Position numbers and translations under genes: made by a program. From IMG/VR virus record IMGVR_UViG_3300036945_000458, positions 1 through 64,000 of that record: DNA of 64,000 nucleotides; one strand, written 5' to 3'. The notes below the pieces were generated by a model. That model was not told the origin of the DNA and searched no databases. It was given only the letters and a program-made list of their open reading frames with translations. Shown in pieces: positions 3,534 through 57,889 of this stretch. The DNA comes from a virus. Each line of letters opens with the position of its first letter. The stretch's first letter is position 1.

Positions 3534-3543
3534 TACAATTAAT

Positions 3544-6486: not shown

Positions 6487-6528
6487 CATTTTTAGTTATA
6501 AAGAATTACCAAAATTTATTACCCACTA

Positions 6529-6559
6529 TTGGATAGTATTATTATTCACATTACATTTG
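6529..6559 (+). promoter_or_regulatory. Bacteroidetes-type promoter
   Basis: TTG at 6529-6531, a 20-base spacer, then TACATTTG at 6552-6559. This matches the Bacteroidetes housekeeping consensus (TTTG/TTG, 19-21 bases, TAnnTTTG). It lies in the 110 bp gap before the gene at 6597. The core TTACATTTGCT is repeated exactly in the gap before the lysis cassette. Confidence 0.65.
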
Positions 6560-6596
6560 CTAATCACATGATTTATCATGTATAAAATAAACACAT

Positions 6597-9260
6597 ATGG
6601 CTTCATATACTGATAAAACCCCAACCTTTAATCCCTACGTAGAGCAGTTGCCCATTGAGGCAATGGTTCAGGTTGGTATGGAGAAACAGAAACAATATAA
6701 TGAAGGTATTGAAAAGATACAAACTAATATAGATAACGTTGCTGGTCTTGATATAATGAAGACTGAACACCAAAATTATCTAGAATCAAAATTAAATAAA
6801 CTAGGAAACGATCTTAAATATGTAGCTGCTGCAGACTTCTCAAACTTCCAACTTGTTAACTCTGTATCAGGAATGACAAATGAAATTGTCAAAGATCCAA
6901 TTGTTCAAGGTGCTGTGTATTCAACTAAGGTTGTTAGAAAAGGGCAGAATAATATGGAGACTGCAAAGAAGGCAGGAAAGTCTTCTGTTCAAAACGAAGC
7001 TAGATTTAACTATGATGTTTCTAATTGGTTAAACGATGGAGATATGTCTACTAAGTTCAATGGAGAATATGTAGACTACATAGACATTGATAAAAAACTT
7101 AGAGACGTTGCTGAGAAAATCCATGAGGTAGATAACTCATTTGAGATACCATTTAAAAGAGATAACGCAGGTAATACATTATATTATAAAACAGATGCTA
7201 AAGGTCAGACATCTGTATCAACAGATCCTAATAGTGGAGGTGTTACAAAAATAGATGACGCTATATTAAGTATTAAAACCAAAGGTAAACCTGCAGAAAA
7301 AATCTTAGCTAACTTCTATGACTCAATTAATGAGAATGATAAAAGACAATTAGGTATTGATTCTTGGTATCACTATAGAGGAGCTACAAAAGACACTTTC
7401 AAAAAAGACATATCAGATAATTACAGGAACACTAAAACAATGTTGAATGATGAGATTATTAATTTAAGTCTCAAACTTCAAACAGATACAAAGTTAACCA
7501 ACGTTGATAGAAGTGCAATACAAGCTAGAATAAATGATGTTAGTGAGATACTAAATAATGGAAGTCTTGACAAGAAGATGAATGATCAGCTTCTTGGTAT
7601 TGATAACATCAAAGATCTTGATAAGTTTAAACAAAATCTCTACACTGAAAAAACATTAACTAACTTAGCTAAAGACATGTCTTGGCAAAGTTATCAAATG
7701 GAATACAAAACCAATCCATATGCTCAAATGGATATGGAGAGAAAAAGATTACAATTCCAATACGACGATGCTGCTAGACAACAAAGAAATGCTGATCGTG
7801 CATTTGGTTGGGACCAAACTAAATTTTACATAGAGCAACAACAAAAGGCTGCTGAGAAACTTGGGTCACAACCTGTAGTAACTCCTGGCAGAATATCTAC
7901 AGATGTTGATAAACCAAGTCTTGATAAACTTAATAAAGAAATTATATCAATTTCAGGTGATCCAAAAGTTCCAGGATCTGGTCAGATACCAGAACTTAAT
8001 TCAGCATATGGTGCACTATTAACTGATCCTAATATTAAAGATAAGAAAAAATATTTGGATGGATTATACAGTGCATATGCAAAAGATCCTTCATTCCTTT
8101 CAAAAGTGAATGATCCAAATATGAAAGAGTATCTAGAAAAACGAAGATCATTAGAAATTACTATTGCACAAAAACGTGCATTGGCTACTGAAACAATGGT
8201 TCAATCTAAAAAATTTGATGAAAAATTAGATAAATTACTTGCAAGCGAACCAGGTATTGTTACAACAAGTGGCAGATCATTATATACAGCAAAAGATTTA
8301 TTTGAATTTAATAACTCAGCAAAATCTTATTATAGAACTACTTATAGAACAGGTGCTCCAGGAGGAGAAATTGCAAATGTTACATTGGATGCTAAAGGGA
8401 TGATGGCAGAATTCAAAGGAACAAAGAAAGAAGCTTTGGCAAAAGCTTTTATCAATGAGTATTATAGAAAAGAATTATCTCCTACAGAGAAAGTTTTATT
8501 TAAAAGAATGAAAGAAGTAGGTTATAAATATGGTGCTGTAGGTAATCAAATACATTATGATAAAATGGCTTTTCAAGCTGACTTCCTTGCTAAGTCTATG
8601 CCAGAAAGACAAACAAATATTGGTACATTGAGTTCTGCTAATACAGATGACATGGATAGAGTTACTCAATTAATTACAAGAAAAGGAATTGAGTTTAGTC
8701 AAGGTGGTGTAGACTCTGATAAGAAAGGTCAATTTGATCCTGATCAAATCCAAACATTAAGAGAAGGAAAAGGTGTTGGATATACTATCGAGAAGAAATA
8801 TGATGGTAGTGCAAATCTTATCATATCTAGTGGTAAAACTCAACAGATTATTCCAATGACACCTAGTGAGTTTAGTGCATACTTTCCTAGATATAGCAGA
8901 CCAAATGCAGTAAATGATATTAAGTATGCAGTGTTAGGTTCTCCAAATAAAACAACAAACCTTAATGGGGTTAAAGATGCTTCTGCTGCAGTGAATGCAT
9001 ATCTATCAGGAGAAAGTCTTCCACAACTAAAAGGTACATCTATTTCTCCATTAGTAAGACTTGATGTCGATGGAAGTCCTTTTAATGATGGTAGTGCTAA
9101 TGATAGATATGTTGTAAGAATGTATGTAAATAATAATGGAGAGTGGCTTACACAAACTCTTACTCCTGATTATGTAAACGATGCAACAATGCAAGGTATC
9201 ATAAATGGGATAGGCACAACTACTGTTGAAGAAATATTAAAACAAAATCGTAAAAGATAA
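6597..9260 (+). CDS. Virion cargo/ejection protein, crAss-like type
   Basis: An 887-residue protein. The N-terminus (F.PYVEQLPIEAM, then KQKQYNEG..KI, AGLD, YL..KLNKLG, and DFSNFQLV) is a pattern that recurs in Bacteroidota phage proteins encoded just before giant RNA polymerase genes. It is rich in charged helices with no signal peptide, membrane segment or catalytic motif visible. It is the first gene after a strong promoter match, and its stop is 5 bp before the polymerase gene. Co-packaging with the polymerase is a reasonable inference from synteny with crAss-like phages, but the function is not shown by the sequence. Confidence 0.6.
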   Translation: MASYTDKTPTFNPYVEQLPIEAMVQVGMEKQKQYNEGIEKIQTNIDNVAGLDIMKTEHQNYLESKLNKLGNDLKYVAAADFSNFQLVNSVSGMTNEIVKDPIVQGAVYSTKVVRKGQNNMETAKKAGKSSVQNEARFNYDVSNWLNDGDMSTKFNGEYVDYIDIDKKLRDVAEKIHEVDNSFEIPFKRDNAGNTLYYKTDAKGQTSVSTDPNSGGVTKIDDAILSIKTKGKPAEKILANFYDSINENDKRQLGIDSWYHYRGATKDTFKKDISDNYRNTKTMLNDEIINLSLKLQTDTKLTNVDRSAIQARINDVSEILNNGSLDKKMNDQLLGIDNIKDLDKFKQNLYTEKTLTNLAKDMSWQSYQMEYKTNPYAQMDMERKRLQFQYDDAARQQRNADRAFGWDQTKFYIEQQQKAAEKLGSQPVVTPGRISTDVDKPSLDKLNKEIISISGDPKVPGSGQIPELNSAYGALLTDPNIKDKKKYLDGLYSAYAKDPSFLSKVNDPNMKEYLEKRRSLEITIAQKRALATETMVQSKKFDEKLDKLLASEPGIVTTSGRSLYTAKDLFEFNNSAKSYYRTTYRTGAPGGEIANVTLDAKGMMAEFKGTKKEALAKAFINEYYRKELSPTEKVLFKRMKEVGYKYGAVGNQIHYDKMAFQADFLAKSMPERQTNIGTLSSANTDDMDRVTQLITRKGIEFSQGGVDSDKKGQFDPDQIQTLREGKGVGYTIEKKYDGSANLIISSGKTQQIIPMTPSEFSAYFPRYSRPNAVNDIKYAVLGSPNKTTNLNGVKDASAAVNAYLSGESLPQLKGTSISPLVRLDVDGSPFNDGSANDRYVVRMYVNNNGEWLTQTLTPDYVNDATMQGIINGIGTTTVEEILKQNRKR

Positions 9261-9265
9261 ATATT

Positions 9266-12200
9266 ATGCCAATTTTTAATGACGAACTTTTAAGTGGTGG
9301 GGTTAATAGAGACACTGAAATAGTTACTGGCCCTTTAGGATCTCCTGTTACTAGACAACTTAATACTAACTTAGGAGGATACACTCCACGACAAGCAGGT
9401 ACAGGATTGTCACTTGCTGAGTTGGCAAAAATGAGAACTGGTAATACAAGTGATTTTGATTCTCCATTTCAAATGGTTCCTAAATCAGAATTGCTGGAGA
9501 ATAAAAGATATGCATTGTATGAGAGAGATAAAGATCTTGAGAACATATATGGATTGCAACAAGGTTGGGGAGCTCAATTAGGAAATGGTTTTGTTAAAAT
9601 GGCAGCCACTGCAGTAGGTACTTTTGCACAAAGTTTTGCTACAATCCCTAATACTATTGCTTCTATTCAAGGAGGTATGAAAGAATTATCAGGAGGAGAA
9701 GATGGATATGAAGGAGCTATTGATAATTGGTTAAAAAACATTGAAGATATATTCCCTAACTATTATACTAGACAAGAACAAGAAAGTCCTTTCTTAGCAG
9801 CTATTCCTGGGTTTTCAGGATCTGCAAACTTTTGGGGAGATAAGATTGTTAAGAACATTGGTTTCACTGTAGGAGCAATTGGTGGGGCAGTAGCACAAGA
9901 TGCTATTGTGGGACTTGCTACAGGAGGGATTGGAGAAATTCCATTGATTGCTAGTCAAATTGGTAAAGCTTCTTTATGGTTAAATAAAATTTTTGCAGGA
10001 ACAAATAAGGTTGATAGGGTATTGGATCTTGCAAGGGCTGCTGGTAAATCAGAAAGTCAATTACTAACTATCCAAAAACTTGGACAAGCAGCTGCTGCTG
10101 TAAAAGTTACTAATGGTGCAAGATATGCATTAGGACTGTATGGCTCTTCAAGAACAGAAGCTGCTGTAGAAGCTAGAGATGGTTTCAGACAAGTTAAGGA
10201 TGAATTATTACGTCAATATAAAGTTCAGAACTTTGGAGCTGATCCAACTCCAGCTGAATTAGAAGAAATAGAAAACACTGCAACAGATGCTATGAATACT
10301 AGATTTGGTATTAACATGGCACTCTTAACTGTATCAAATGCCATTCAGTTTGATAATTTATTTAAATCGTTTACTGTTGCTAGTAAATCAGGAATTCAAG
10401 GAAGCATCACTAAAGAAATTGAACAGGCAGGAAAGATTGGACTTAAAGAAGGATCTTTAGATGTATTTGAACAAAAGGCTGCTACTGGATTAGCAGGAAG
10501 AGTTTGGGAAACTGTTAGACCTAAAATGGCTAACATTTTTACAGAAGGTGTTTATGAAGAAGGTGGACAGTTTGCTGCTGAGAGAGGTACGTATGATTAC
10601 TATACAAGAAAGTATAGAGATCCTAGTAAAGGAAAGAATGTTGAAACTTGGAATAGTTTAAATGAAGTTATAAGTTCTACTACTAAAGGATTGTCTGATC
10701 AATTCAATACCACTCAAGGTATTGAGAACATGCTTGTTGGTGGAATATCTGCAATGATTACTGGTGGTATCATGGGCAAGATAGATCAAGTTAAAGGTAG
10801 AGGTAAAGAAGCTAGATTGCAACATGCTATTAATTCTTTGAACCAATATGGTTTAACAGGTATATTAGATCAGAAATATACAGACACTCTTAATGCTGTA
10901 AACATTGCTAAGGAAATGGATGAGGCAGCTAAGAGTGATAATATATTTAAATACAAAAACTTAAAACATGATATGTTCTTTGGTTTTGTTAAGTCACGTG
11001 TTTCTACAGGAATGCATGACGTAACAATTGAGCAATTGAATATGTTGAAAGACTTGTCCAAAGAAGAGTTTGAAAAAACTTTTGGTATGGACTTCAGCAC
11101 TTCAAACAGAGAAACTGTTGCTGCATATGTAGACAAGATGATCTCTTCTGCAAATAACATTCATGATACAATCACAGCATTAGATGCAACATTCCAGAAT
11201 CCTTTTAAAAATGTTGTAAATCCAGAAACTCCTGAAGATGTAGTTAGTGCACAAAACTTTAAAACATTTAATGATTGGAAAACTGATTTGGCATATTATG
11301 CTAGTGTTGCTCCAGATATAAATGATAGATTGAACTCAATCAACCAAGATGTTATTACAATAAACCCTTTATTGAATAATGATATTCTTGCAACACTTAC
11401 TCGTTCTGATACATTACTTGACTTGAGTAAACAATATGAAGAGCAAGCAGACCAGTTAAGTAAAACCATTACAGACTTTACAACTCCTGAAGATAAGAGA
11501 AGAATCAAAAATCAAGTAAAGGAGTTACGTACACTATCTGAAAAAATAAATCTGGCTAAGAATAACCAAAATTTAGATTTAAAATTATTCAATCAATTAT
11601 TAAATTTTGAATTGAATGGCAGAGATTCTAAAAAAGATGCAATCATACCTAATGAAAAATCTCTTGAGTTATTCAAATTTGGTGTTGATATAAATCGAAA
11701 CAATATACTTAAAGAAGAAGTTTCAGATATCTATGATAAATTAAGTGACAAAGAAGGTTTTGAAAAATATTTTGCACAAGCACAAGACATTGCTAATCAA
11801 GCTGTACCTGAACCTGAAACAATTGACACAGAAGCTGAGGAAGTTACAGATCCTGTATATGATTTTAAAAACTCAAAAGGAGTTGCAGAATCACCAGAGA
11901 TTGGTAGAGAGTATGAATTACCTTCTGTAAAATCAGCTAAGGTTAGAAAGATGGGAGAGGACAGATTTAAAGTGACAGCTCCTAATGGTGATGTTACATT
12001 CTATCCTACAAGAGAGAAAGCAAAAGAAGTAGCTGATGAAATGAATATGGATTTGGCTGACTTAACTAAAGTTAAAGTTATAGCCACCAATCCTGATGGC
12101 ACTGTTAAAGTGGAGGACCTTGCTGGTAATATCCAGAACATCAGTCCTGCACAACTTGCAGGATATGAGAGATTACAATCTGATCAAGAAAAGTTAACTA

Positions 12201-15200
12201 AGGATAAAGAACAACTTGATGAAGAACAAAAGAAAATAGAACTCGACTCTCCTGAAGTGGCTACAGGTGATCCAACAACAGAAGTAATCAACACACAAGA
12301 GGTTACTGTTACATTAGAACCTATTGAAGAAAGTTATTTAAAAGATGAGAGTATCTATTTCATCTCTGGAACATCTCCTTCTGAAAACGAATCTAATTCT
12401 GAAAATGCTGCTATACATATTAGAAACTCAAGAGAGTTTTTAAACAATGCTAAGAACTTTAAAAATAGAGACAACCTTCGTGCTATAATGGTTACAGCAA
12501 AACAATTAGAAGCATTGAACCTTAATGGTGTTGCACAGATATCATATGGTGTTCCATTGGATACACCACTGTCTGATATTCAAGATATATTTGATGTAGA
12601 TAAAGGGTTAGTCCTTCAGTTGTTTGTAGATCAAGATGAACAAACAGGTGAGCTACATGTTGTAAATAAAAATGGTGAACGTATTGGAAAGTTAGGTGAT
12701 GAAGGAATTAATGTTGCTGATGCAATATTCCAAACAATGCCTACAACAGAATTGTACTACACATACACAGATCCTAAAACAGGACAAAGAGTTCCTAGAT
12801 TTAGAGAGAATCAAAGAGCTACATTTGAGAGAAGAGCAAAAGCTTGGGAAGCAAAACGAAGAGAATTATTCAATGCTCCTGGAAAGTCTTACAAAATATT
12901 CAGTTTCACAATCTCTAGAGGATTACCTTTTACAGCTAGAGATAATAATGGACAATTCAAAAGAAGTGTTGTAGGTGGTGTATTGATTCCTGAAGAAGTG
13001 ATTCCTAAAATAGAAACACTTATTCAATTTTCTAAAGAAGGAACTGTATCACATCAAGGACGACTTATTTCATTCCCTACAGGAAGACCTGTATTACAAT
13101 ATGGTGATACGTTGGAGTTCTTGAACAATACTAAATTTGGAAGAACTAAAGCTATTGTTATTTATGAAATAATAAAAGCAATGGCTGATGACATCAAAGC
13201 TAAGTCTGATGCAAACCAAAAGGTTACAATTAATCCAGTATTTACAAACTTCTTACAAAATCTTTTATATTGGAAAAAAGGTGGAGCCACACAAAATCAA
13301 ATCTATGTAGATACAATAGGTATGAATATCTCTTTGGGAGGTGTGAATTATCCTATTACACAAATTGCTGACTATGCTAAACAAATAGTAGATCAGTTAA
13401 CTGATACATATCATAACGTAAATGGTAACACACTTAAATTTAATTTCCACAAACCTTTCATAGAATACTATATAGAGGACAACCAAATTAAAAATAGACA
13501 GTGGACAAACTATCAAGAGTATTTATTGGGTTCTAAAACTCCAGATGGAAAATCTAGAAATGAAGAAACCACTCCTCTTGTTACAAACACTTTACCTCCT
13601 ACATCAAGCGTTCCTTATACACATAAGCAGAAGTATGCTACAATGAACGACCTTGATCTTCCTATTCAGAACATCCCTGAAACAGAAGCACCTGCTCCAC
13701 CTGTAGCACCTACACCAGCTGCACCAGCTGCTGCTACAACATCAACAAAGATTGGTGAGTATGAAATGAATGGTCAAACACCAAACACATTTCCATTTGC
13801 AAGTGGTCCAGTTGAGTTTACAGGAACTGTAGATGCCCAAGGTAATATTGCAGTAGATGTTAAGTCAAATGATACAATAAAAAATGCTGCAGAGAATGCA
13901 GCTACATTAGCTACAATAGATAATGTATTACAACAAACAGGTAAGTTCAATGCTGAAGATAGTGCAGAAGAACGTGTTGCAACATTTGTAGCAGATAAAC
14001 TTATTGTTGAATTAGTGAACTTACAAAAAGCTGAAGCTGCTAAAGCTGAACAACAAAAACCTGAAGAAAAGAAAGAAGAAGTTTCTGATATAGAAGCTAA
14101 AAAAGCTGATATAGAAAAAAGAAAACGAGAAGAATTGGCAAAGTTATCAGAGCCAAGACCTGTTACTTTGAAAGAAGAAGATCTTCCTGAAGATATGCCT
14201 GAAAAAGGTAGACATGCTGTTTATAGATTATTATTAGATTTTGCAGCAAGTATATATCGTGTTGATCCAATAAGCGAAGAAGCTTTACTAAACGATGAAG
14301 GATATTATTGGTTACAAAAACTTGGTGGAAATTCTTATCAATTTATAGGTAAGCCTAGAATGGCATACAAAAAATTATTAGAAGAAAAAGAGCAAATAGA
14401 TTCGTCATTATATAAACGTGATAAAGAAGAAATAATTGCTAAATATAATGCAGAACTAGCTGCTTTAGAAGGCAAAGAAGTTCAACCACCTATTAATGAT
14501 AAACCTCTTGATACAGATGAGATAGAGTCTATCGATGATCCATATATGCGTGTTGCTAATGGTGATTTGAAGAAAGGTGTAATGGACAGCAATGATGTTG
14601 AAATATTAAAAGCATGGCAGGCAGAAAATCTTCAAGGTATTCCATTAGAAATATTAGAAAATCTTGTTAACACATTTGATAATGAGAAAGCATTTGGTGT
14701 GTTTGAAGATGGTGTAGCTAAGTTTTACAAAGCTGGACCAAGATCAGCACCATACCACGAGCTCTTTCACGCTATATGGAGAAACTTCCTTACACCTGAA
14801 CAGAGAGAAGCTCTTACACAAGAGTTTAGAAACAAGTCTGGTAAGTTTACAGATAGAGCTTCAGGTAAGAAAATCAACTATGCTGATGCTACAGACGAAC
14901 AAGTAGAAGAAAGATATGCTGATGACTTTGGTGAATTCAAAGCAGGGAAACTTCCTGCTAGAACACTAACAGAAAGAGTATTGAAATTCTTTAGAAACAT
15001 CATTGAGTTTGTTAAAAAGTTTGTAGGCAAACCTTCTTTGAAAAAAGATTTGTTCAAAGCAATTAATGAAGGTAAGTTTAAAGACTACAAACTTCCTGAG
15101 AATGTAAAAGAACAAGCTCCTGCATACATGCGTATTCCTGGATTAACAGAATCACAAGTGTATGAAATAGTTGAAGATATGAAAGTTCATACTTCAGGAT

Positions 15201-18200
15201 ATATATTTGGTAAGGATAAAAAAGCATTGTACAACATAAAAGAAATCACAGGACAACAAATCTATGATAGATTGGTAGATGTGTACAAGCAGAAAAAAAT
15301 ATACGATCAACTTGGAGAAGAACGTTTCAATCAATTATTTATAAGATTGACAGAATCGTTTCGTCCAATGCGTATTAACATTAATGCTGAAGAAGTTGCC
15401 AGCATCAATGATGAAAACTCAAGCAGCACATTATATGCACCTGAGCCATTCTCTGTAGATTCAAAAAAGAATGCTCCATTTGCAATTAAGTTTATTGCAT
15501 CTACGCTTCCTCAGACAATTCCAATGAACCAGGAAAACAGTAGTATGCTAGAGATGCCTAAGAGATTAGAAACAGCAAAACTAAAAAGTTTCAAACTTGT
15601 TCCTTTCAGTAAAGTGTATGCTACTTTGATGAATAAACTATCTAACACTTCAAATGTGAAGTTGTTAGAAAAAAGATTATTGGAACTTGCAAAAGCAGAA
15701 TCTGAATATGTAAGATTCTATAAAAACATAGGTGGAGATATTGAGAATGGATATATTCCTTTTGAAAACTTCAAAGATGAAGATTGGAAACTATTCATTG
15801 AGTTCTATCAAACATTCACCAAACAAAAACCAGAAGCACTTGTTCAGTATGTAATGGAGGATGAAGTTTTCACAGCTCCTGCTAATCAGTTTACTGCTAG
15901 CAAAGAAGTTGAAAGAACTTGGTTTGATACAATGAAAACAATTTCTAAGGATAGAAAATCACTTATCAAACTTGACAATAAGATATACAAAGTTGATGTA
16001 AATGCATTCCCTACTAGTGTTCCAAAAACTGCAGAAGAAATGATTGCATTCTTGGAAACATTAGGTGTGGACTTCCCTATACAAGAATATAAAAAATTAA
16101 AACTCACAAAACTATCTACAGATAAGAAATCAGATAGAGATAGATTTAGTGATGCTGTATCAGGAATATATACATATTTAAAAAAGACTCCAGACATTGC
16201 TACAATTAAAGGTAAGACATTAGGTATCAATAACCAATTGTCCATCTTGTCAGGACTATATGTAAAAGTTACAAATCCTATCACTGAGAACACTCACTAT
16301 GGTGTAGAAGGAAACAAACTTCAAGACTATACAGAGAGCAATGCTCCATCTGTTTTTGAAAATGAATTTAATGAGTCAGCTAATTTAGAACAACTTAAAA
16401 AACTAAGACCAGAATTAAATGATGTGTTTAGTGAGAATAGTGTTGTTCTTAAATCAGGAGGAGAGTTCTACAATAAAGATGGTGAGAAGATAAAAAGCTT
16501 CAAAGTTTCATATATCGAGGGAGAGAAAAATACTAACACAGATAAAGGAACTGTTACAACAAATCTTTCTTTAGGAAGAAGATTTACACAAGAGTTAAAT
16601 CAAAACCTAAATGGTAGATATTACATATTGATTCCTGCTGAATCTGCAACAGAGTGGGAAATTAATCTTGGTAATCATGTGTCATTCTCTGATTTGAAAT
16701 CAAACAAAGGATGGACACAGGTATATAAAATATTTGATGGTTATCTATCAGATGAAATTGGATTAGCCCTTGATGCAGATAACAGAGAGAAATTGAAAAG
16801 TGTTGGTAATAAAGCAAAAGAACTTCGTTTCATGAAGGATATTTTGCCTGACATAATTGTTAAGAATCTACATTCAATGTTGGCATCAGACACTGTTCCA
16901 AGAGCAGATATTGATCAATATGTAAAAGATAATGCTGACGCAATACATCAATCTGTAAAAGCATTTATACTATCTACAGTAGAAGATACAAAAGGTGAAT
17001 TAATAAATAATAACCAAATCAGAAGAAGAGAGTCTGGATATATTTACAGAAATCTTGATAATACATTCATCAATAGAGAGAATGAAACTAGTGCTGATAA
17101 ATTAAACAAATCTGATCTTACAGAAGAAGATTTAAATAATGTATTGACATTTGCTAACGTTAATTACATCATCAATAATATTGAACTTCACAAAATCTTA
17201 TTTGGTGATCCATATCAGTTTGCTGTGAAGAATGGAAAACTAGATGAGACTAAACGTATTAAATCTTTCCTATCTCCAAGAAGAATAACTTTTGATACTC
17301 CAGAGTACAACACTTTCTTGAACACTAAGGAATATAGTCGTGCAGGTGAAATTGAATTAGAAGCTCCTAATGCTGAGAAAGGAACTTTTGGAGATCTTGG
17401 ATACCACTTACATAAACCATATGCTAATACAGTTACGTTGCAAGATGTTGATATTGTTGGTAGCGTTGCTTTAATGGAAGGAGTTAGCCAAGAATTAAAA
17501 GATGCATTTAGTAGAACTAATGAAGCAGATGCTGCATCTATCATAAAAGATTTAACATACAGAGAAGTAAAACTAAAAAATCGTCAATGGTCTAATGAAG
17601 CTGAAGAATGGCATCAATGGCAAATGGCTTGGACCAGACAAAACCATCCTGAATATAAATATACAAATGAGGCACTGAGAAAACAGGATGAGAAATTAGT
17701 AGAATCTCCTGAGCCTAAATACACATTAGATGTATTAAAACCTATTGTAACAGGAAACAAATACAACAAGAACTACTTTAACCAAGTGTTAGATAAGTTC
17801 TCTCAAATGCCTATGTACTATAGTATGGTGAAAGGTACTAATCTTGAAAAGCTTTACACTAAGATGTGGAAAGAAGATACAGACTATGTAATCATGCAGA
17901 GTGGTAGAAAAGAGGGTATTGAAGAAATGCATCCATTATATGTAGATGGTCAGTTCAACGATGCTGCATTTAACAATAACATCCAAGTGCCTTGGAAAGC
18001 TTATGGTATCCAAGTGGAGAATGCATACGAAGGTGTTAAGTCTCAGACAAGAGGATCTCAAATGATAAAGATCATCAGTATGGACATGTTTGATGCTGGT
18101 GAAGAAGTTATGCCAGGTGCAAAACAAGAGTATGATAGATACAATAGAATCTTAGATGCAGTTCATCAGAATGCTTACAACACACTCATCTCTGAACTTG

Positions 18201-21200
18201 GACTAGAAGATTTAGGTACATCATTCAGGTTAGTAAACAATGATTCTATAGCAAGAACTTTACAAGCAGAGTTATTCAAAAGAGAACTATCTGAGAATGC
18301 AAAAGATACATTGAAGCGTGATGCAAATGGAGAATTTGTAATTCCATTTGAAGCATCTCCTATGTATAAAAAAATCAAAGATGTTCTCTATTCTATGATT
18401 GAGAAATCATTGCTTTCTCCAAAGATGTCAGGTAGCTCTCACGTACAAGCTCCTGTGACATTGTGGGAAAATGCTAAAAAGGGAAGAGAGTTAGTATTAG
18501 CTAGAAGAGATGATAAAGGAAAACTAATTTCCTACAGTAAAATATCTAGAGAAGAGTTTGAGAAACTTTCTGAAGAAAAAAAGAAAGACGTTAAACTTAC
18601 AAGTGGTGCTCTTAAGTTCTATGAAAATGAAGATGGAAAAAGACACTGTGAAGTATTAATTCCTGCTTGGTTTAAAGATAAATTAAAAGGTAAATTCAAA
18701 AGCGATAAAGAGTTGATGACTTACCTAAACAATCATCCTGATGGTAAAAAGATTTTATCAGGTATAGGGTTTCGTATTCCTACACAAGCTACCTCTTCTA
18801 TAGATGTGTTTGTTGTTAAAGGATTCCTTCCAGCATACATGGGAACAACAGTTATTGTTCCTTCAGAGATTACAACTAAATCAGGATCTGACTTTGATAT
18901 TGATAAATTGAACATGTACCTTAAGTCTATATACATAGATGCGAAAGGAGATATTCAATTAGTATCATACAAAGGATCTGAAGAAGCTACAAAAGAATTC
19001 TATAGCAAAGTTTACGATGATACAATCAAAGCAGAGATTGAGAAAATAAGAAAAAGTGACAACTATAGAGAAGACTTGTACAAGATATTAGATACATTAG
19101 AAACAAACAGTCTTCTAAGTAAAGAACAGAAGAAGTTCTATGATACGCATGAGACAGTTATTAATGAAATAATTTCTCAAGCTGATGATCTTGATATGAT
19201 TCCTTCAGAATACATACTCAAACAAATAACAAATCAAGCTCAGAAAGAAGTTAAGGCAACTGAGAAGTTATTAGATAGCACATTCAAAGAAAAGTTTGTA
19301 AACGACATGTACAAAAAATCTTTGGAGAATGAGCTGTATGATTCTATGGAGAAGCTTCTAACATTACCACAAAACTTCTTACGACTTATTTCTCCTGTAA
19401 CAGATGGAGGACTTTCTAAAGTTGCAGATGAGATGGATGCACTTGTTGGTTATGATGAGTCAAAAATTAAAAACAGACTACTTAGTAGAACATACATGAC
19501 TACTCTTAGACATCAATACTTGATTGCTAAGAAATGGGTAGGTATTGCTGCTACAAACATTACAGGAAACTCTAATGCACAGAAGAGCAAAGTGATCATA
19601 GACTTAGATAGAGTTTATAATAGACTAAACTACCAAGACCAACAAGTATTGTATAATGATAAAATACTTCTTCCACATAACACTGTGGATGTGGATGGTA
19701 AGTCTTATGCAACTATATCAAAAATAAAAGTAGCTAATTCTGATAAATACATTTCTGATAGACTTTCTGGATATGCTACATCTTTTGTGGATGTTGCAAA
19801 CAATCCATTCATCATGAAGATTGTTAAATCTAATTTGATTGTAAGCACATTCATGTTCTTAGAAAGAATTGGTGCAGGAGAGCACACTATATTCTTCTTG
19901 AATCAACCAATCATTGCAGAGTATTTGAAGTATCTTGACAATATAGATTCTAAATCATTATTCAGTAGAGGTAATATAGATAACTTCACTACGTCATTTT
20001 TCATGGATAAAAATGTATCTAGTGAAATAAAACCTATACAAGGAAATGAATTCTATGATCTTGATAACTTGAAACAAAACATCAAGGATTATTATGCTAC
20101 AGATGGTAAAAGCTTAACTCCTGAAAAGGCACGTGAACAAAATTTAATCTTTGATGAGTTCTTGAAATATGCTAAGATGGCAGAGCACTTGTTTGACTTT
20201 AGTCAAGCTACTAACTACGATACAAGTAGATTTAGAAGTGGTGAATCATTTCGTAGAAAGAGACTAAGAACACAAATTGCAAGAGAGAAAAACATATTTA
20301 CATCTGTTGATAATTTATTCAAATCAACTTTTCTTGGTAAACAAAAAGACCTAGTTGAAAAGAGTATGCAAAGTATGGGAGCTATCTTCAAACTTGAAGA
20401 AGATAGATTCTCAATCATTACAGACTCTGTATTAAGACCTTTCCAAGAAAATAAATATTTAAGTAACGATGACTTTGACACTATTGCTAGCAAAGTGAAA
20501 GCATCTTTCTTAGACTATATAGTTCAAGTTAAATTAGGAATGAACACTCCTGCATTATTGACTGGTGAGAATTCTGTTGCTAGTCAATTATTAAAAGCAA
20601 GAGAGGCAAACAAAGATGTTAAGATATTACATGATCTTGAACCAACCTTGTCAGATAGAATAGATGGTGCAAAAAGCATTAGACTAAGAGCTAATTTAAA
20701 AGAAGCTAGCGATGAGAATTTGTTTATTGAGATGATGAGAGAGTTGAAAGAAATCAACCCTACATTATTCAATAACATAATCAAAGTTGCAAGACTGCAA
20801 GGTTCATACCAATCAGCTATCTCGATAAACAATGTTATGCCTGTAGATGATTTTGCTGAAGATATTAAGGGCATCTTTAATACGTTGGTTGCTTCAGATG
20901 ATATTAGAGCTTTTAAAAATGGCTGGTTCCAAAGAAACAATTGGAAAGATGACGCTATTTTCCCTGAATTAAAAAATACAAAATTTGCTTTTCCTGTAGA
21001 TAATGCAGGAGCAATAGTTGATGAACCTATAGGAGAAGATCCATATGGAAATTTAATTTATCAATATACGTCTAATTTGTTTCCATACATTCCAAGTTTA
21101 GGAGTGGATGCAAGTAACAGAGGAATTCTTTTACTACATAGTAAGTATGACACATTTAATGGAGCTAATGAAGACTATTTAAAAGTTCCTAGAGTTGTAC

Positions 21201-22720
21201 AACTACCTGGAACAGAAGAACAAATTGACCTTACAACAGGACAAACACTTGTTAAGGCTGCATTCAGAGCAAGAAAGAATGCTGGTGACTTGTCACTAAG
21301 AGATATGTTTGGATATCAAAAAGTAAAATATCCTGATGGAACGCCATTGGTTACAGGTAAAGGTGAATATGTTTACAAAATCATAAACCTTTATGGTGAT
21401 GGTGCATTGTTCTCTGAATACAAGTTGGACTACACACCTTCTGAGATTGACAATGGTACAATGAAAGTTAAACAGGAATTGAATGACATAGATATCATTG
21501 AGTACTATGGTGGTAGAGTAGTTGCTGCTCCTACAATTCAAACATTCAGTTCAGAAACTGAACAGCTGTACAGTCAAATGGGTAACATAACTCAATCTGA
21601 AAATGTAGTGTTACCAGGAGTAGGTAATTTAGCTGATGTTACATATGAAGGTAAGAACTTCTGGAGTGAAATAGTGCCTGAAGCAAGAAACTGGTATGAA
21701 AATCCTAGCAATCCTATCATCATTGCATATAGAGGAAATCGTAAAAAATCATTCCTTGAAAACTATAAAAGTAATACTATTGGAAATCCATTTGATTGGC
21801 AAAAAGAATATGGAACAAGAGACCAACAAGGTGTTATATCTACTAAGAAGTTCATCGAGTGGTTGATTACAGGCAATAACTTTGGAGAAGAGAATGCTAC
21901 AGAAGCATACAGACAAGCATTGGTTAATGATTTCAAATCAGGTAAATGGAAAAATAATGTAATCCTATACTACCAAGAGAAAAATTATGCAACTCATGCT
22001 ACAGCTTTAGATTATTTGATAAACAAATATAATTGGAATAGTAGTGAGCAATCTGCAGAAGAAGAAATTACACCTGAAGAAAATTTACAGTTTGAAATAA
22101 ATAATCTTATTCAACGAATAGCTGAACTACAAGAAGTACAGAAAGAACTTAATACTAATAATCTAGAAACAATTGTATTAAACAATCTGCCTCTAATAAC
22201 TCCAGACTCTGCTAGAAAAGAAACTGGTATGAAAACTGGAACTAAAGCAGATATCAAATACACATTATTGAGTGGTAGTGGAGTTACTGTTGATCGAGCT
22301 GCTCACAATATATGGCAAAACAATTTTGGAATTGATTCTAACGTCACCACGCAAGACATAAGAGATATTATTATTGATATACTATCTTCAGGAAGTAAAG
22401 CTAACTACGCTGCTGAAATCAATACATCTAGTGAAGTGCGTCAATTAAAACAAGACTTGAGAGATTTACAAGATGAACTCTCTTCAATGAAAAAAGCTAA
22501 ACGTGCTGAGAAAGCAACGAAGCCTGCTTCAAAACAATTGAATTTATTTGCAGAAACATTTGATGACATAAAAGATTTTGATCCTAAAAGAAAAGAAGAA
22601 ATTTTAACTAACTTTGCTGATAAACATAAAATGACTATTGCACAAGCTAAAGAATATATTAACAATGGACTTGCTGTAAATAGAGAAGAAGTAATCAACA
22701 AACTTAAAGACTGTTACTAA
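9266..22720 (+). CDS. Giant virion RNA polymerase polyprotein with embedded metallopeptidase motif
   Basis: A 4484-residue protein, the largest in the window. Residues 3209-3213 are DFDID, preceded by KGFLPAYMG and IVPSE and followed by KLNMYL. This is the metal-binding loop of the two-barrel RNA polymerase found in crAss-like virions; the polymerase core probably spans about 2000-4130. The N-terminal 500 residues hold several hydrophobic, possibly membrane-active stretches (about 105-135, 193-235, 486-505). A Pro/Ala linker lies at about 1473-1495 and a Lys/Glu coiled region near 1580-1640. HELFH at 1831-1835, with a later ERYADDF, looks like a gluzincin site. A C-terminal unit near 4150-4260 (YRGN, then GNPFDW) is unassigned. 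In crAss-like phages the homologue is injected and transcribes early genes. The length is far above the roughly 2200 residues of the studied polymerase, so this is a fusion with other polyvalent domains. The polymerase call is strong; the other domains are motif-level. Confidence 0.85.
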   Translation: MPIFNDELLSGGVNRDTEIVTGPLGSPVTRQLNTNLGGYTPRQAGTGLSLAELAKMRTGNTSDFDSPFQMVPKSELLENKRYALYERDKDLENIYGLQQGWGAQLGNGFVKMAATAVGTFAQSFATIPNTIASIQGGMKELSGGEDGYEGAIDNWLKNIEDIFPNYYTRQEQESPFLAAIPGFSGSANFWGDKIVKNIGFTVGAIGGAVAQDAIVGLATGGIGEIPLIASQIGKASLWLNKIFAGTNKVDRVLDLARAAGKSESQLLTIQKLGQAAAAVKVTNGARYALGLYGSSRTEAAVEARDGFRQVKDELLRQYKVQNFGADPTPAELEEIENTATDAMNTRFGINMALLTVSNAIQFDNLFKSFTVASKSGIQGSITKEIEQAGKIGLKEGSLDVFEQKAATGLAGRVWETVRPKMANIFTEGVYEEGGQFAAERGTYDYYTRKYRDPSKGKNVETWNSLNEVISSTTKGLSDQFNTTQGIENMLVGGISAMITGGIMGKIDQVKGRGKEARLQHAINSLNQYGLTGILDQKYTDTLNAVNIAKEMDEAAKSDNIFKYKNLKHDMFFGFVKSRVSTGMHDVTIEQLNMLKDLSKEEFEKTFGMDFSTSNRETVAAYVDKMISSANNIHDTITALDATFQNPFKNVVNPETPEDVVSAQNFKTFNDWKTDLAYYASVAPDINDRLNSINQDVITINPLLNNDILATLTRSDTLLDLSKQYEEQADQLSKTITDFTTPEDKRRIKNQVKELRTLSEKINLAKNNQNLDLKLFNQLLNFELNGRDSKKDAIIPNEKSLELFKFGVDINRNNILKEEVSDIYDKLSDKEGFEKYFAQAQDIANQAVPEPETIDTEAEEVTDPVYDFKNSKGVAESPEIGREYELPSVKSAKVRKMGEDRFKVTAPNGDVTFYPTREKAKEVADEMNMDLADLTKVKVIATNPDGTVKVEDLAGNIQNISPAQLAGYERLQSDQEKLTKDKEQLDEEQKKIELDSPEVATGDPTTEVINTQEVTVTLEPIEESYLKDESIYFISGTSPSENESNSENAAIHIRNSREFLNNAKNFKNRDNLRAIMVTAKQLEALNLNGVAQISYGVPLDTPLSDIQDIFDVDKGLVLQLFVDQDEQTGELHVVNKNGERIGKLGDEGINVADAIFQTMPTTELYYTYTDPKTGQRVPRFRENQRATFERRAKAWEAKRRELFNAPGKSYKIFSFTISRGLPFTARDNNGQFKRSVVGGVLIPEEVIPKIETLIQFSKEGTVSHQGRLISFPTGRPVLQYGDTLEFLNNTKFGRTKAIVIYEIIKAMADDIKAKSDANQKVTINPVFTNFLQNLLYWKKGGATQNQIYVDTIGMNISLGGVNYPITQIADYAKQIVDQLTDTYHNVNGNTLKFNFHKPFIEYYIEDNQIKNRQWTNYQEYLLGSKTPDGKSRNEETTPLVTNTLPPTSSVPYTHKQKYATMNDLDLPIQNIPETEAPAPPVAPTPAAPAAATTSTKIGEYEMNGQTPNTFPFASGPVEFTGTVDAQGNIAVDVKSNDTIKNAAENAATLATIDNVLQQTGKFNAEDSAEERVATFVADKLIVELVNLQKAEAAKAEQQKPEEKKEEVSDIEAKKADIEKRKREELAKLSEPRPVTLKEEDLPEDMPEKGRHAVYRLLLDFAASIYRVDPISEEALLNDEGYYWLQKLGGNSYQFIGKPRMAYKKLLEEKEQIDSSLYKRDKEEIIAKYNAELAALEGKEVQPPINDKPLDTDEIESIDDPYMRVANGDLKKGVMDSNDVEILKAWQAENLQGIPLEILENLVNTFDNEKAFGVFEDGVAKFYKAGPRSAPYHELFHAIWRNFLTPEQREALTQEFRNKSGKFTDRASGKKINYADATDEQVEERYADDFGEFKAGKLPARTLTERVLKFFRNIIEFVKKFVGKPSLKKDLFKAINEGKFKDYKLPENVKEQAPAYMRIPGLTESQVYEIVEDMKVHTSGYIFGKDKKALYNIKEITGQQIYDRLVDVYKQKKIYDQLGEERFNQLFIRLTESFRPMRININAEEVASINDENSSSTLYAPEPFSVDSKKNAPFAIKFIASTLPQTIPMNQENSSMLEMPKRLETAKLKSFKLVPFSKVYATLMNKLSNTSNVKLLEKRLLELAKAESEYVRFYKNIGGDIENGYIPFENFKDEDWKLFIEFYQTFTKQKPEALVQYVMEDEVFTAPANQFTASKEVERTWFDTMKTISKDRKSLIKLDNKIYKVDVNAFPTSVPKTAEEMIAFLETLGVDFPIQEYKKLKLTKLSTDKKSDRDRFSDAVSGIYTYLKKTPDIATIKGKTLGINNQLSILSGLYVKVTNPITENTHYGVEGNKLQDYTESNAPSVFENEFNESANLEQLKKLRPELNDVFSENSVVLKSGGEFYNKDGEKIKSFKVSYIEGEKNTNTDKGTVTTNLSLGRRFTQELNQNLNGRYYILIPAESATEWEINLGNHVSFSDLKSNKGWTQVYKIFDGYLSDEIGLALDADNREKLKSVGNKAKELRFMKDILPDIIVKNLHSMLASDTVPRADIDQYVKDNADAIHQSVKAFILSTVEDTKGELINNNQIRRRESGYIYRNLDNTFINRENETSADKLNKSDLTEEDLNNVLTFANVNYIINNIELHKILFGDPYQFAVKNGKLDETKRIKSFLSPRRITFDTPEYNTFLNTKEYSRAGEIELEAPNAEKGTFGDLGYHLHKPYANTVTLQDVDIVGSVALMEGVSQELKDAFSRTNEADAASIIKDLTYREVKLKNRQWSNEAEEWHQWQMAWTRQNHPEYKYTNEALRKQDEKLVESPEPKYTLDVLKPIVTGNKYNKNYFNQVLDKFSQMPMYYSMVKGTNLEKLYTKMWKEDTDYVIMQSGRKEGIEEMHPLYVDGQFNDAAFNNNIQVPWKAYGIQVENAYEGVKSQTRGSQMIKIISMDMFDAGEEVMPGAKQEYDRYNRILDAVHQNAYNTLISELGLEDLGTSFRLVNNDSIARTLQAELFKRELSENAKDTLKRDANGEFVIPFEASPMYKKIKDVLYSMIEKSLLSPKMSGSSHVQAPVTLWENAKKGRELVLARRDDKGKLISYSKISREEFEKLSEEKKKDVKLTSGALKFYENEDGKRHCEVLIPAWFKDKLKGKFKSDKELMTYLNNHPDGKKILSGIGFRIPTQATSSIDVFVVKGFLPAYMGTTVIVPSEITTKSGSDFDIDKLNMYLKSIYIDAKGDIQLVSYKGSEEATKEFYSKVYDDTIKAEIEKIRKSDNYREDLYKILDTLETNSLLSKEQKKFYDTHETVINEIISQADDLDMIPSEYILKQITNQAQKEVKATEKLLDSTFKEKFVNDMYKKSLENELYDSMEKLLTLPQNFLRLISPVTDGGLSKVADEMDALVGYDESKIKNRLLSRTYMTTLRHQYLIAKKWVGIAATNITGNSNAQKSKVIIDLDRVYNRLNYQDQQVLYNDKILLPHNTVDVDGKSYATISKIKVANSDKYISDRLSGYATSFVDVANNPFIMKIVKSNLIVSTFMFLERIGAGEHTIFFLNQPIIAEYLKYLDNIDSKSLFSRGNIDNFTTSFFMDKNVSSEIKPIQGNEFYDLDNLKQNIKDYYATDGKSLTPEKAREQNLIFDEFLKYAKMAEHLFDFSQATNYDTSRFRSGESFRRKRLRTQIAREKNIFTSVDNLFKSTFLGKQKDLVEKSMQSMGAIFKLEEDRFSIITDSVLRPFQENKYLSNDDFDTIASKVKASFLDYIVQVKLGMNTPALLTGENSVASQLLKAREANKDVKILHDLEPTLSDRIDGAKSIRLRANLKEASDENLFIEMMRELKEINPTLFNNIIKVARLQGSYQSAISINNVMPVDDFAEDIKGIFNTLVASDDIRAFKNGWFQRNNWKDDAIFPELKNTKFAFPVDNAGAIVDEPIGEDPYGNLIYQYTSNLFPYIPSLGVDASNRGILLLHSKYDTFNGANEDYLKVPRVVQLPGTEEQIDLTTGQTLVKAAFRARKNAGDLSLRDMFGYQKVKYPDGTPLVTGKGEYVYKIINLYGDGALFSEYKLDYTPSEIDNGTMKVKQELNDIDIIEYYGGRVVAAPTIQTFSSETEQLYSQMGNITQSENVVLPGVGNLADVTYEGKNFWSEIVPEARNWYENPSNPIIIAYRGNRKKSFLENYKSNTIGNPFDWQKEYGTRDQQGVISTKKFIEWLITGNNFGEENATEAYRQALVNDFKSGKWKNNVILYYQEKNYATHATALDYLINKYNWNSSEQSAEEEITPEENLQFEINNLIQRIAELQEVQKELNTNNLETIVLNNLPLITPDSARKETGMKTGTKADIKYTLLSGSGVTVDRAAHNIWQNNFGIDSNVTTQDIRDIIIDILSSGSKANYAAEINTSSEVRQLKQDLRDLQDELSSMKKAKRAEKATKPASKQLNLFAETFDDIKDFDPKRKEEILTNFADKHKMTIAQAKEYINNGLAVNREEVINKLKDCY

Positions 22721-25700
22721 TGGCTTGTATAAATCCAAATGATCCAGCATACCAAGAAATCTTGGCTAGAGTAGGTAATCCTATTCTAGCTGAGATTGAA
22801 TTTGATAAACAACAACAGATTAAGTCAGGTGTAGAGAAACTGTTTGAGTCTAATCCTGAATTAGCTAATCAAGTATATGATGCTTCAGGGTTTCAAGTTA
22901 ATGCAATAGAATCAAATATAGAAAATGCAACAATAGGAATAACCTCACAACAAAAAGAACAAGCTATACAACAATACTCTCAATACTTAAACTCTATATT
23001 TCCAGATAGTAAAGTGAAGGATATTGTTTATCATACAACATTTAAAGAATTTAAAGGGGATAAATTTAATAAACCATCTGAAGAATCTTTAACTAAAGGG
23101 GCAGATGATGGTATTTATTTTAGTAAAAATCCAAATTATTACACTAGTGAAGGAAATAAAATTGCAAGTATTTTAGAGTTAAAAAACCCAATGAAATATA
23201 GTCATGGAGTTTTTATGAACGCTATAGATGCTTCTGGTTATAGACAAGTAGAAGGTTCTGATGGTTTTATTACATATTTAAAAGAATATGGAGCTGATAT
23301 AAATGCTGTTAAACCTCAATTTCCAGATATTGACCCTAATGATTTTTCCAAAGAAGAATTGGAAGAAATAGAAAATAATTATGAAAAAGAATTAAATGCT
23401 TGGAAAGATTTAGTAAATAAAGAGGAATTAGTATTTGCAACAGTATTTGAACCAGAACAAATTCATATATTAGGAACTCAGAAAGACATGAATGACTTTA
23501 AAGATTTCCTAAATGATGAACAACCTCTATACCAATTATCTGATTCAAAAACAATAAGCTCTCAAGCTTCTCCTAAAACTATTGCTATTGTAAAAGACTT
23601 CCTAACACGTATTGGTGTTGATTTTGGATCAGTAAAAGAAATAGTTGTCAATGGTCAGAAGATAGATGCTAATGGTGTTGCTAGAATCACACAGGCATTA
23701 GTTCAAGTGTTGGAGGGTAAAGAAGCTACAGCACTTCCTGAAGAAGCTATGCACTTTGCTGTTGAGATTATTCAACAGACAAACCCTAAACTCTTCAATC
23801 AGTTATTAAAAGAGATAAACAGTTACTCTGTATATAACGAAGTGTTAGCAGAGTATAGCAAGAACAAATACTACCAAACAAAAGATGGTAAACCAGACAT
23901 ATTAAAACTAAAGAAAGAAGCTATAGGTAAAGTGTTAGCTGAAACAATAATCAATCAATCTGAAGGATTTACAGAAAGACCTGAGTTGTTAGCTAAAGTA
24001 CAAACATGGTGGCAGAAAATTCTTGACATAATATCAAACCTATTTGCAAAAAGTGGATTTGATAGATTTGCTATGGACATCCTATCAGGAAAAGAGATAG
24101 GAACTGTCAATGATTTAGTGAAAACAAAGTCAGAAGAAATATATCTTCAACAAGATCCTCAGCAAAAAGTAATAGATGATTTAAAATCTACATCTGCTAA
24201 GATTGAAAAAAGAGATGAAGTTTATTACATAGATGACAAAAAGATTAACAGAAGGGTTACAGAACTTGTAGATGATTGGTATCGTAGAAGATATGGTGAC
24301 AACAGTTTACTTAAGACTGAGTATCAACAAGCAGTGGATGATCTTAAAGCTGAGAAAGGAACAGCAGGGCACAATGACCTTGAACATGCTGCAAAATTAT
24401 ATCTTAATGAAGATGGCTCACTAAAAACTAAAGATGAGATGGATGCTGCAGAAATTGATGACGTATATCAATCTCTTATTGATCCTACTGACCAATCAAT
24501 GTATCAGCTCCTTAGAACTAATATGAGACAACGATTGGAATCATTTCCATCAGGAACTAAGTTCTTACTTGAGCAAAAGATATATGATCCTAATAGAAGT
24601 ATTGCAGGTACTGTCGATTTCTTAGCAATTACTCCTGAAGGTAAAGTGAGTATCCTTGACTGGAAGTTTATGAATCTAAATACAGATGCATACACTGATG
24701 TTCCTTGGTATAAAGTTTTAGCATGGCAGTTACAGATGAATCAGTACAAATTGATTCTTCAAAATGCCTATGGTGTAAAGTCACAAGACTTTCAACAAAC
24801 AAGGATGATTCCTATTCAAGCAATCTACAGTGACCAGAATTCTAAAACAGGTGAGATACCAAAACTTCTTCGTATAAGAATAGGAGACGTAGATGTTAAA
24901 AACATTACAGATGACTTCTTACTTCCTGTAGCATTGAAAGATGAGAAAACAGGTAAGAGAAAGATAGATGAGTTGATAACAAAATTAAATGCTCTCTATG
25001 AAAACATTTCTGCTAAGTCAGTAACTGATGAAGAGAAGCTTGCTAAGAATGAGCAGTTGAACACTTTGTTTACAGCAATAAGACGTTTACAAATTCAACA
25101 AGATGTCACTCCATTGATCAGACAAGCTCAAGTTTTAATTGTATCTACTCAGTCCATAATTGATAAATACGAACAAAAGTATAAAGATAGAGATCCAAAA
25201 ACTTTTACAAATCAAGAGATTAATGATTTTAGTGGAGAGGTACAAGATTCTCTTTCTGCTATAGATGTTTATACAAAACTTTATTCTAACTTAAAAGAAA
25301 TCATACAAGACGATCCTGATTCTGCAGAATTATTAGAAGACCTTAGAAAGGTATCTGATAAAGCTATTGATTTTGAATCTGAACTTCAATACATTCTTAG
25401 GGAATTCACAGCAAATATCACAGCTAAAAAAGAAAATGTAAGTAACCTATTGTTACCTGAGAAGGTTATAAAAGGTATCACTAAACTATTCTCTACTACA
25501 TCTAAACTTCAAACTAAAGCAATACAATTCATTTATAAAAAAGCCAATAAGGCATTTGGTTATTCTGCACAAGACACTCTTACAGAGAATAAAAAACTTA
25601 TGGAGTTGAAGAAGAACTATGATGCATGGGCTAGATCAAAAGGACTATCTCTTAAGAATTATTTTAGCATGATTAAGAAAGCTGGTAGCAATGAGTTGAT

Positions 25701-28299: not shown

Positions 28300-28743
28300 A
28301 TGAAAACATTTTTATTACAATTACTAGCAGCCTTACTTTTATTTTTTGCGCCAATTCAAGAGTTAGTTATGGTTGTAGGTTTAGCAATAATGCTGGACAC
28401 ATTCACAGGTATTTATAAATCAGTTAAATTACAGGGATGGAAGTCTATTCGTAGTAGAAAGTTGTCCAATATAATAAGCAAGATGGTTCTTTATGAGGTG
28501 TCAATCATCATCCTCTACCCAATCGATAAATTTTTATTGAACGAACTGTTGCTGAACATTGTTTCAGTTCAATTCTTTTCTACAAAAGTAGCATGTGTTC
28601 TTCTTATTCTAGTAGAGCTTACATCAATTAAAGAGAATATAGAAGCTGCTCTTAAGATTAATATCTGGCAGATTTTAAAAAGAACAATAAACAGAGCAAA
28701 AGAAATCTCCCATGATGTAGATGACATAGCCAACCCTAAATAA
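28300..28743 (+). CDS. Phage holin (toxin-secretion/phage lysis holin type)
   Basis: A 147-residue membrane protein with hydrophobic segments near 1-30, 65-80 and 95-110 and a basic amphipathic loop (VKLQGWKSIRSRKL) between them. This matches the phage holin_4 family, which makes holes in the inner membrane to start lysis. It heads a compact cassette with other small membrane proteins and an endolysin, which supports the call. Confidence 0.75.
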   Translation: MKTFLLQLLAALLLFFAPIQELVMVVGLAIMLDTFTGIYKSVKLQGWKSIRSRKLSNIISKMVLYEVSIIILYPIDKFLLNELLLNIVSVQFFSTKVACVLLILVELTSIKENIEAALKINIWQILKRTINRAKEISHDVDDIANPK

Positions 28744-28749
28744 TATATT

Positions 28750-29825: not shown

Positions 29826-29829
29826 GTAA

Positions 29830-30087
29830 ATGGGATTTTTTAGAGAATTAGTAAGTGATGACAATTCAATAGATGAGAAAGCATTTGTTGGGGTCATTTC
29901 ATTTTTTGCAATGGTATTTACATTGTTAGTAGATGTAATTACAGGCATCTTTGACAAGGAGTTAATCATCAAACAATTTATCTTTGATGGATTTATGACT
30001 CTTACAATGATCTGTTTTGGTATAGCCACAGCAGGTAAAGTATTTAGTATGAACAAACAAAAGAAAGAACAAGATGCAACTGAGTAA
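29830..30087 (+). CDS. Small holin-like membrane protein
   Basis: An 85-residue protein with two hydrophobic helices (about 19-40 and 52-72) separated by a short charged turn, plus a charged C-terminus. Its place directly before the endolysin, with a 14-base overlap, suggests the endolysin-linked holin. It could also be an antiholin for the first gene of the cassette. Confidence 0.6.
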   Translation: MGFFRELVSDDNSIDEKAFVGVISFFAMVFTLLVDVITGIFDKELIIKQFIFDGFMTLTMICFGIATAGKVFSMNKQKKEQDATE

Positions 30088-57878: not shown

Positions 57879-57889
57879 TGTTCTAAGTT

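What the first reader, a model, noticed from the sequence alone, without database searches (positions are those of the whole stretch)
9266..22720. Giant 4484-residue virion RNA polymerase fusion
DFDID at residues 3209-3213 with IVPSE...GSDFDIDKLNMYL marks a crAss-like virion RNA polymerase. Such polymerases are known, but this protein is about twice the length of the studied example and carries an N-terminal membrane-active half, a zinc-peptidase motif and an unassigned C-terminal domain in one open frame. It may be cut after or during entry into separate enzymes.
Basis: partly seen in the sequence, partly recalled or inferred. Interest (0 to 1): 0.85.

Follow-up and report, generated by a model that had tools for sequence, protein, structure and literature searches.

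The report
Giant injected phage RNA polymerase fusion
This 4,484-residue protein is a real crAss-like-phage RNA polymerase fused to an entry protein and a zinc-peptidase-like domain, an arrangement already present in described gut crAss-like phages; its less expected features are a peptidase site that flips between two paired states across relatives and a tail that carries exchangeable extra enzymes.

Summary
In detail: 9266-22720 is one open 4,484-aa frame with DFDID at 3209-3213. The core (2560-3720) matches the solved phi14:2 virion RNA polymerase gp66 (6VR4) by profile (E 4e-58) and by fold (Foldseek E 1.4e-30, TM 0.64). The extra length is explained: residues 1-620 match crAss001 gp47 and phi14:2 gp67, proteins encoded separately there; a zincin (HELFH 1831-1835 plus E1881) sits at the junction; residues 4090-4484 are a variable tail. 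The giant fusion is not unique: at least 48 of 66 IMG/VR relatives and several described Suoliviridae (4,491-5,801 aa) have it, so this is a new member of a known kind. The self-cleavage idea is weakened. In 70 of 99 zincins HExxH has become HExxE and the third ligand Glu has become Lys or Arg, with no exceptions and at least 8 independent coupled switches, yet the chain stays fused and the domain stays under purifying selection. Accessory enzymes (NADAR, AlkB-like, RecD-like, DprA-like, a second HExxH domain) are inserted only in the C-terminal tail or just before the zincin. Most likely mechanism: an ejected polymerase that carries an entry module and exchangeable cargo.

The parts
9266..22720 (+). 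giant virion RNA polymerase fusion, 4484 aa
   Evidence: single-ORF homologues
9266..11125 (+). residues 1-620: entry/cargo module, homologous to crAss001 gp47 N-terminus and phi14:2 gp67
   Evidence: hmmsearch E 3.7e-37 and 1.6e-20 (gp47 42-291, 360-649), 3.7e-17 (gp67)
11126..14065 (+). residues 621-1600: conserved in this environmental lineage only, function unknown
   Evidence: conserved in the family; no significant match to reference phages or Pfam
14063..14545 (+). residues 1600-1760: poorly conserved linker, cassette slot 1 in relatives (NADAR or a second HExxH domain)
   Evidence: occupancy 0.39-0.48 over 1601-1750; insertions in L039, L051, L046, L045, L139
14543..15445 (+). residues 1760-2060: zincin-like domain
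   Evidence: homologous to crAss001 gp47 C-terminus and to zincins of cr4_1 and L064-066; AF2 helix / 3 strands / HExxH helix / Glu helix
14756..14770 (+). HELFH, residues 1831-1835
   Evidence: H1831 and E1832 invariant in both classes
14906..14908 (+). E1881, third zinc ligand candidate; covaries perfectly with residue 1835
15443..16945 (+). residues 2060-2560: region matching gp66 N-terminal part (gp66 about 222-712)
   Evidence: hhalign E 2e-4; Foldseek of model 1745-2560 to 6VR4 E 8e-11
16943..19945 (+). residues 2560-3560: RNA polymerase catalytic core
   Evidence: 6VR4 E 4.2e-58, colinear 809-1265 and 1328-1739; AF2 pLDDT 84, pTM 0.83; Foldseek 6VR4 E 1.4e-30
18890..18904 (+). DFDID metal-binding motif, residues 3209-3213
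   Evidence: invariant in 49 aligned relatives
19943..21535 (+). residues 3560-4090: C-terminal part of the polymerase module
   Evidence: first part matches cr4_1 and L064-066; conserved across the family
21533..22720 (+). residues 4090-4484: variable C-terminal tail, cassette slot 2
   Evidence: tail length 17-1168 aa among relatives; 4263-4440 shared with L010, L012, L018, L046 only; no Pfam family
22720..28164 (+). 1814-aa RNA-polymerase-associated protein, homologue of crAss001 gp49, with a weak PD-(D/E)XK match; 1-base overlap with the fusion
   Evidence: tblastn to crAss001 gp49 and cr108_1; Pfam PDDEXK_1 E 0.0044, below cut-off
6597..9260 (+). 887-aa upstream protein, probable further ejection/cargo protein (inferred from position)
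   Evidence: homologue in 15 of 16 near-full-length relatives

Best explanation
It is the early virion RNA polymerase of an environmental crAss-like (Crassvirales) phage, made as one chain in the order: gp47/gp67-type entry module, cassette slot, zincin-like domain, two-barrel RNA polymerase of the gp66 type, cassette slot. It is most likely packaged in the capsid, threaded partly unfolded through the tail ahead of or with the DNA, refolded in the cell, and used to transcribe the early genes together with the gp49/gp65-type partner encoded just downstream. Shown here: homology, fold, order of modules, conservation. Inferred from relatives: packaging, ejection and transcription. The zincin is a conserved part of the packaged protein whose canonical metal ligands are present in this phage but replaced in most relatives, so its common role is probably structural, in packaging or entry, or a non-canonical chemistry, rather than obligatory self-cleavage. 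The tail is a place where accessory enzymes are gained and lost.
For: 6VR4 match by profile and fold. Fusion equals gp47/gp67 + zincin + gp50/gp66. crAss001 gp47, gp49 and gp50 are virion proteins by mass spectrometry (PMC10172136); phi14:2 gp65-gp67 were annotated from virion MS/MS. Same single-ORF architecture in cr4_1, cr53_1, cr55_1, cr130_1. Partner gene downstream. Crassvirales portal in 16 of 16 near-full-length relatives. Zincin under purifying selection in both classes. Accessory domains only in two slots.
Against: No experiment on this phage; the 65-kb record has no confirmed capsid genes. Residues 621-1600 and the window's own tail are unassigned. Transmembrane evidence for the N-half is weak. 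In crAss001 the gp47-type half is a separate gene on the opposite strand, so the fusion is not needed for function in the group.
Confidence: 0.86

Rival explanations
1. Self-processing polyprotein: the zincin cuts the chain between the entry half and the polymerase, in the capsid or after entry, freeing separate enzymes.
For: Intact HExxH plus Glu in this phage. The two halves are separate genes in Steigviridae, and the gene break lies on either side of the zincin in different lineages: C-terminus of crAss001 gp47, N-terminus of the polymerase ORF in L064-066. Autoprocessing was proposed for zincins of polyvalent proteins (PMC5512222).
Against: 70 of 99 aligned zincins have lost the canonical ligand set while the chains remain fused. 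No position elsewhere in 4484 columns switches with the zincin state as a cleavage site might; only 1835 and 1881 do so perfectly. N4 virion polymerase with a zincin is packaged unprocessed (PMC5512222).
Confidence: 0.15
2. The zincin is an injected effector that cuts host proteins; the HExxE forms are relatives that lost the target.
For: Repeated switching between states would fit gain and loss of a target; neighbouring slots carry conflict-type enzymes such as NADAR.
Against: The HExxE class is not decaying: H1831, E1832, E1835, Lys/Arg1881 and E1882 are strictly kept across pairwise identity down to 20% and dN/dS is 0.08-0.36.
Confidence: 0.15
3. Assembly or annotation artefact joining two genes.
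For: Halves are separate genes in phi14:2 and crAss001.
Against: Closed single ORFs in at least 48 of 66 plus 27 further contigs and in described phage genomes.
Confidence: 0.01

Closest known systems
Suoliviridae giant RNA polymerase ORFs (cr4_1 4491 aa, cr55_1 4551, cr53_1 4645, cr130_1 5801)
   Same: one chain with a zincin in the middle and the gp66-type polymerase in the C-terminal half; gp47-type N-terminus also found in cr4_1; a second large protein follows
   Different: gut lineage, three of the four use TAG as a sense codon; sequence very distant; different C-terminal tails
Cellulophaga phage phi14:2 gp67 + gp66 (6VR4) + gp65
   Same: homologous modules in the same order
   Different: separate genes; no detectable zincin in gp66 or gp67
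crAss001 gp47 + gp50 + gp49
   Same: gp47 has the N-terminal module and a C-terminal HExxH+Glu zincin; gp50 is the polymerase; all found in virions (PMC10172136)
   Different: gp47 is a separate gene on the opposite strand
Coliphage N4 virion RNA polymerase gp50 (3,500 aa; PMC12633501, PMC5512222)
   Same: giant ejected polymerase chain with an N-terminal module studied in lipid nanodiscs and a zincin HExxH domain
   Different: T7-like single-subunit polymerase, not two-barrel; zincin lies after the polymerase; convergent, not homologous as a whole
P23-45 gp96 RNA polymerase-tape measure fusion (5,002 aa; PMC10770324)
   Same: two-barrel virion polymerase fused to membrane and metallopeptidase domains
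   Different: long-tailed siphovirus; polymerase at the N-terminus of a tape measure protein
Polyvalent proteins (PMC5512222)
   Same: injected multidomain proteins with a zincin and exchangeable conflict-type enzymes
   Different: here the constant unit is a two-barrel RNA polymerase; zincin clade not compared with theirs

Membership tests
crAss-like single-chain two-barrel virion RNA polymerase (gp66 type) | DxDxD catalytic motif in the conserved context | tested here: met
   DFDID 3209-3213, invariant in 49 relatives
crAss-like single-chain two-barrel virion RNA polymerase (gp66 type) | sequence and fold homology across both barrel regions in one chain | tested here: met
   6VR4 E 4.2e-58, colinear 809-1739; Foldseek E 1.4e-30, TMq 0.64, next best hit not significant. 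Barrels inferred through 6VR4, not traced one by one
crAss-like single-chain two-barrel virion RNA polymerase (gp66 type) | partner large proteins of the transcription block next to it | tested here: met
   gp49/gp65-type 1814-aa ORF downstream; gp47/gp67 module fused
crAss-like single-chain two-barrel virion RNA polymerase (gp66 type) | present in virions and transcribes early genes | not testable with these tools
   shown only for relatives (PMC10172136; phi14:2 structure paper not held)
order Crassvirales | crAss-type structural genes | tested here: inconclusive
   portal in 16 of 16 near-full-length relatives; crAss001 major capsid query matched only 1 of 16; the window record itself is a 65-kb fragment and was not shown to carry either
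zincin metallopeptidase | HExxH plus third ligand Glu on the next helix, three-stranded sheet | tested here: met
   HELFH 1831-1835, E1881; AF2 secondary structure; no PDB zincin found by Foldseek or profile, so fold assignment rests on topology and motif
zincin metallopeptidase | proteolytic activity | not testable with these tools
   none
N4-type virion RNA polymerase | T7-like single-subunit polymerase | tested here: not met
   matches two-barrel 6VR4; N4 2po4 only at E 2
P23-45-type RNA polymerase-tape measure fusion | fusion to a tape measure protein of a long tail | tested here: inconclusive
   N-half matches crAss001 gp47, not a tape measure protein; tape measure families gave no hit
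polyvalent protein | injected chain combining a zincin with unrelated enzymatic domains | tested here: met
   domain content across the family; injection inferred

The most novel reading that the evidence does not exclude
The zincin of this polymerase family is a two-state site: HExxH with Glu1881 or HExxE with Lys/Arg1881, switched as a unit at least eight times, with H1831 and E1832 invariant in both states. The HExxE/Lys state would then be not a dead peptidase but a maintained alternative (altered chemistry, or a metal-free structural form), making the injected polymerase a natural series for testing what virion-polymerase zincins are for.
Probability: 0.3. Interest if true: 0.72.

Novelty: new member of a known kind. 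Interest (0 to 1): 0.5.

Why it matters
Giant polymerase chains with an entry module and a metallopeptidase domain occur in three virion-polymerase groups with different organisation (N4, P23-45, crAss-like), and what the peptidase does is open. This family gives a natural experiment: about 100 relatives in which the metal site is intact in some and replaced in most while the rest of the chain is kept, so obligatory self-cleavage becomes directly testable. The cassette slots suggest that phages load extra enzymes, some probably against host defences, onto the polymerase they inject.

Tried and rejected
Pfam and PHROGs scans of the whole chain gave nothing above cut-off; single-sequence phmmer against the PDB missed 6VR4, which the profile then found. 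DNA-level search of phages found nothing. A search of bacterial genomes for host-linked copies found no relative, so the host is not established. A hidden zincin in phi14:2 gp66 or gp67 was looked for and not found. Strong transmembrane segments in the N-half were looked for and not found. A co-varying cleavage site was looked for and not found. Recombination of the zincin relative to the polymerase as the sole cause of the switching: the zincin's own tree still needs 10 changes, 8 forced by well-supported branches, although these are quick-search trees without bootstrap.

Full report
Observation. The window holds one open frame at 9266-22720, 4484 aa, ATG start, with DFDID at 3209-3213 and HELFH at 1831-1835.

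Polymerase identity. A 49-sequence profile of residues 2560-3720 matches only one solved protein at a significant level: 6VR4, the phi14:2 virion RNA polymerase, E 4.2e-58, colinear over 809-1265 and 1328-1739. The AlphaFold2 model of that region (pLDDT 84, pTM 0.83) again finds only 6VR4 (Foldseek E 1.4e-30, TM 0.64 by query length).

What the extra length is. Family profiles show residues 1-620 to match crAss001 gp47 (E 3.7e-37 and 1.6e-20) and phi14:2 gp67 (3.7e-17); residues 1760-2060 to match the C-terminus of crAss001 gp47 (5.6e-20) and the N-terminus of the polymerase ORF in L064-066; and residues 2560-3560 to match gp66 and crAss001 gp50. So the chain is gp47/gp67 + zincin + gp66/gp50. 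In phi14:2 these are adjacent genes sharing one base; in crAss001 gp47 is on the opposite strand. crAss001 gp47, gp49 and gp50 were all detected in virions (PMC10172136). The partner protein gp49/gp65 is encoded next to the fusion in the window. The crAss-type portal is found in 16 of 16 near-full-length relatives.

Is the fusion known? Yes. Described Suoliviridae have the same arrangement in one ORF: cr4_1 4491 aa, cr55_1 4551, cr53_1 4645, cr130_1 5801, and a review states polymerase ORFs of up to about 6000 aa (PMC10136315). A zincin next to the polymerase is annotated in CrAssphage ZA (RNAP-associated protein fused to a zincin protease).

The zincin. The AF2 model of residues 1745-2560 shows a helix, three strands, the HExxH helix and a second helix with E1881, the core described for polyvalent-protein zincins (PMC5512222). 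No PDB zincin was returned by fold or profile search, so the assignment rests on motif and topology. Across 99 aligned domains residue 1835 is His in 29, always with Glu1881, and Glu in 70, always with Lys (69) or Arg (1); 33 of these rows come from contigs not used to find the pattern and show no exception. crAss001 gp47 was left out of that count because its profile alignment was off at this site; by eye it reads HEAFH with Glu. The two positions change together in all 8 independent pairs on supported branches (sign test p 0.008). Over all 4484 columns they are the only two that track the state perfectly; the next is 1839, one helical turn on. H1831 and E1832 are invariant in both classes. 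Close pairs in both classes show purifying selection on the domain (dN/dS about 0.04-0.36).

What this means for cutting. If the zincin had to cut the chain, the canonical ligands should be kept wherever the chain is fused. They are not. The N4 virion polymerase also has a zincin, is packaged uncut, and needs that region for encapsidation (PMC5512222). A structural or packaging role, with catalysis optional or altered, fits best. The strict retention of the His-Glu pair in the HExxE class is unexplained by simple decay and is the basis of the novel case.

Cassette slots. Beyond residue 4090 the tail varies from 17 to 1168 aa. Recognisable modules occur in 33 of 88 chains: AlkB-like oxygenase, NADAR, RecD-like helicase, DprA-like, DUF7831, phrog_2072, and a second HExxH domain. 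They lie in the tail, or within 350 residues before the zincin (5 cases), and nowhere else seen; the one case not classed automatically lies far past the zincin, near the C-terminus. The nearest relative, L008, is almost identical in the zincin yet has an extra domain of about 118 aa in the tail. The window's own tail (4263-4440) is shared with four relatives and has no family.

Limits. No host is established. Trees are quick-search. Function is inferred from relatives. The N-half's membrane role is plausible from the gp47 homology but not from hydropathy.

Noticed in passing
L075 (PP511876, Dulem virus 42): The polymerase region is annotated as many small genes under the standard code but reads as one frame of at least 5359 aa with TAG as glutamine: probably a mis-annotated recoded crAss-like phage.
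   Followed up: partly
L079 (cr108_1), 1985-10888 and 11179-13575: The polymerase is split between two ORFs: one (2967 aa) with zincin and the region before DFDID, the other (798 aa) with DFDID.
   Followed up: partly
window 14765-14767 and 14918-14920 (residues 1834 and 1885): A second pair in the zincin covaries: Phe with Ala, or Gly with Met/Trp/Leu, consistent with packing of the two helices.
   Followed up: partly
L023, L027, L028, L047, L048, L055, L097 tails; L045 and L139 before the zincin: A second, unrelated HExxH domain (HEVKH/HEKAH type) is appended in nine relatives, eight of which have the HExxE central zincin.
   Followed up: partly
window 28300-30541: Lysis-type cassette: holin family (28300-28743) and peptidase M15 (30074-30541), with a four-helix-bundle protein resembling chemoreceptor sensory modules between them (29124-29825).
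   Followed up: no
window 35632-37245: Leucine-rich-repeat protein of 537 aa in a phage genome.
   Followed up: no
window 55566-57917 (-): 783-aa protein with a GHKL-type ATPase domain, possibly a topoisomerase subunit.
   Followed up: no
window 6597-9260: The 887-aa upstream protein has a weak match in a Leptolyngbya (cyanobacterial) phage and in an epsilon crAss-like phage.
   Followed up: no
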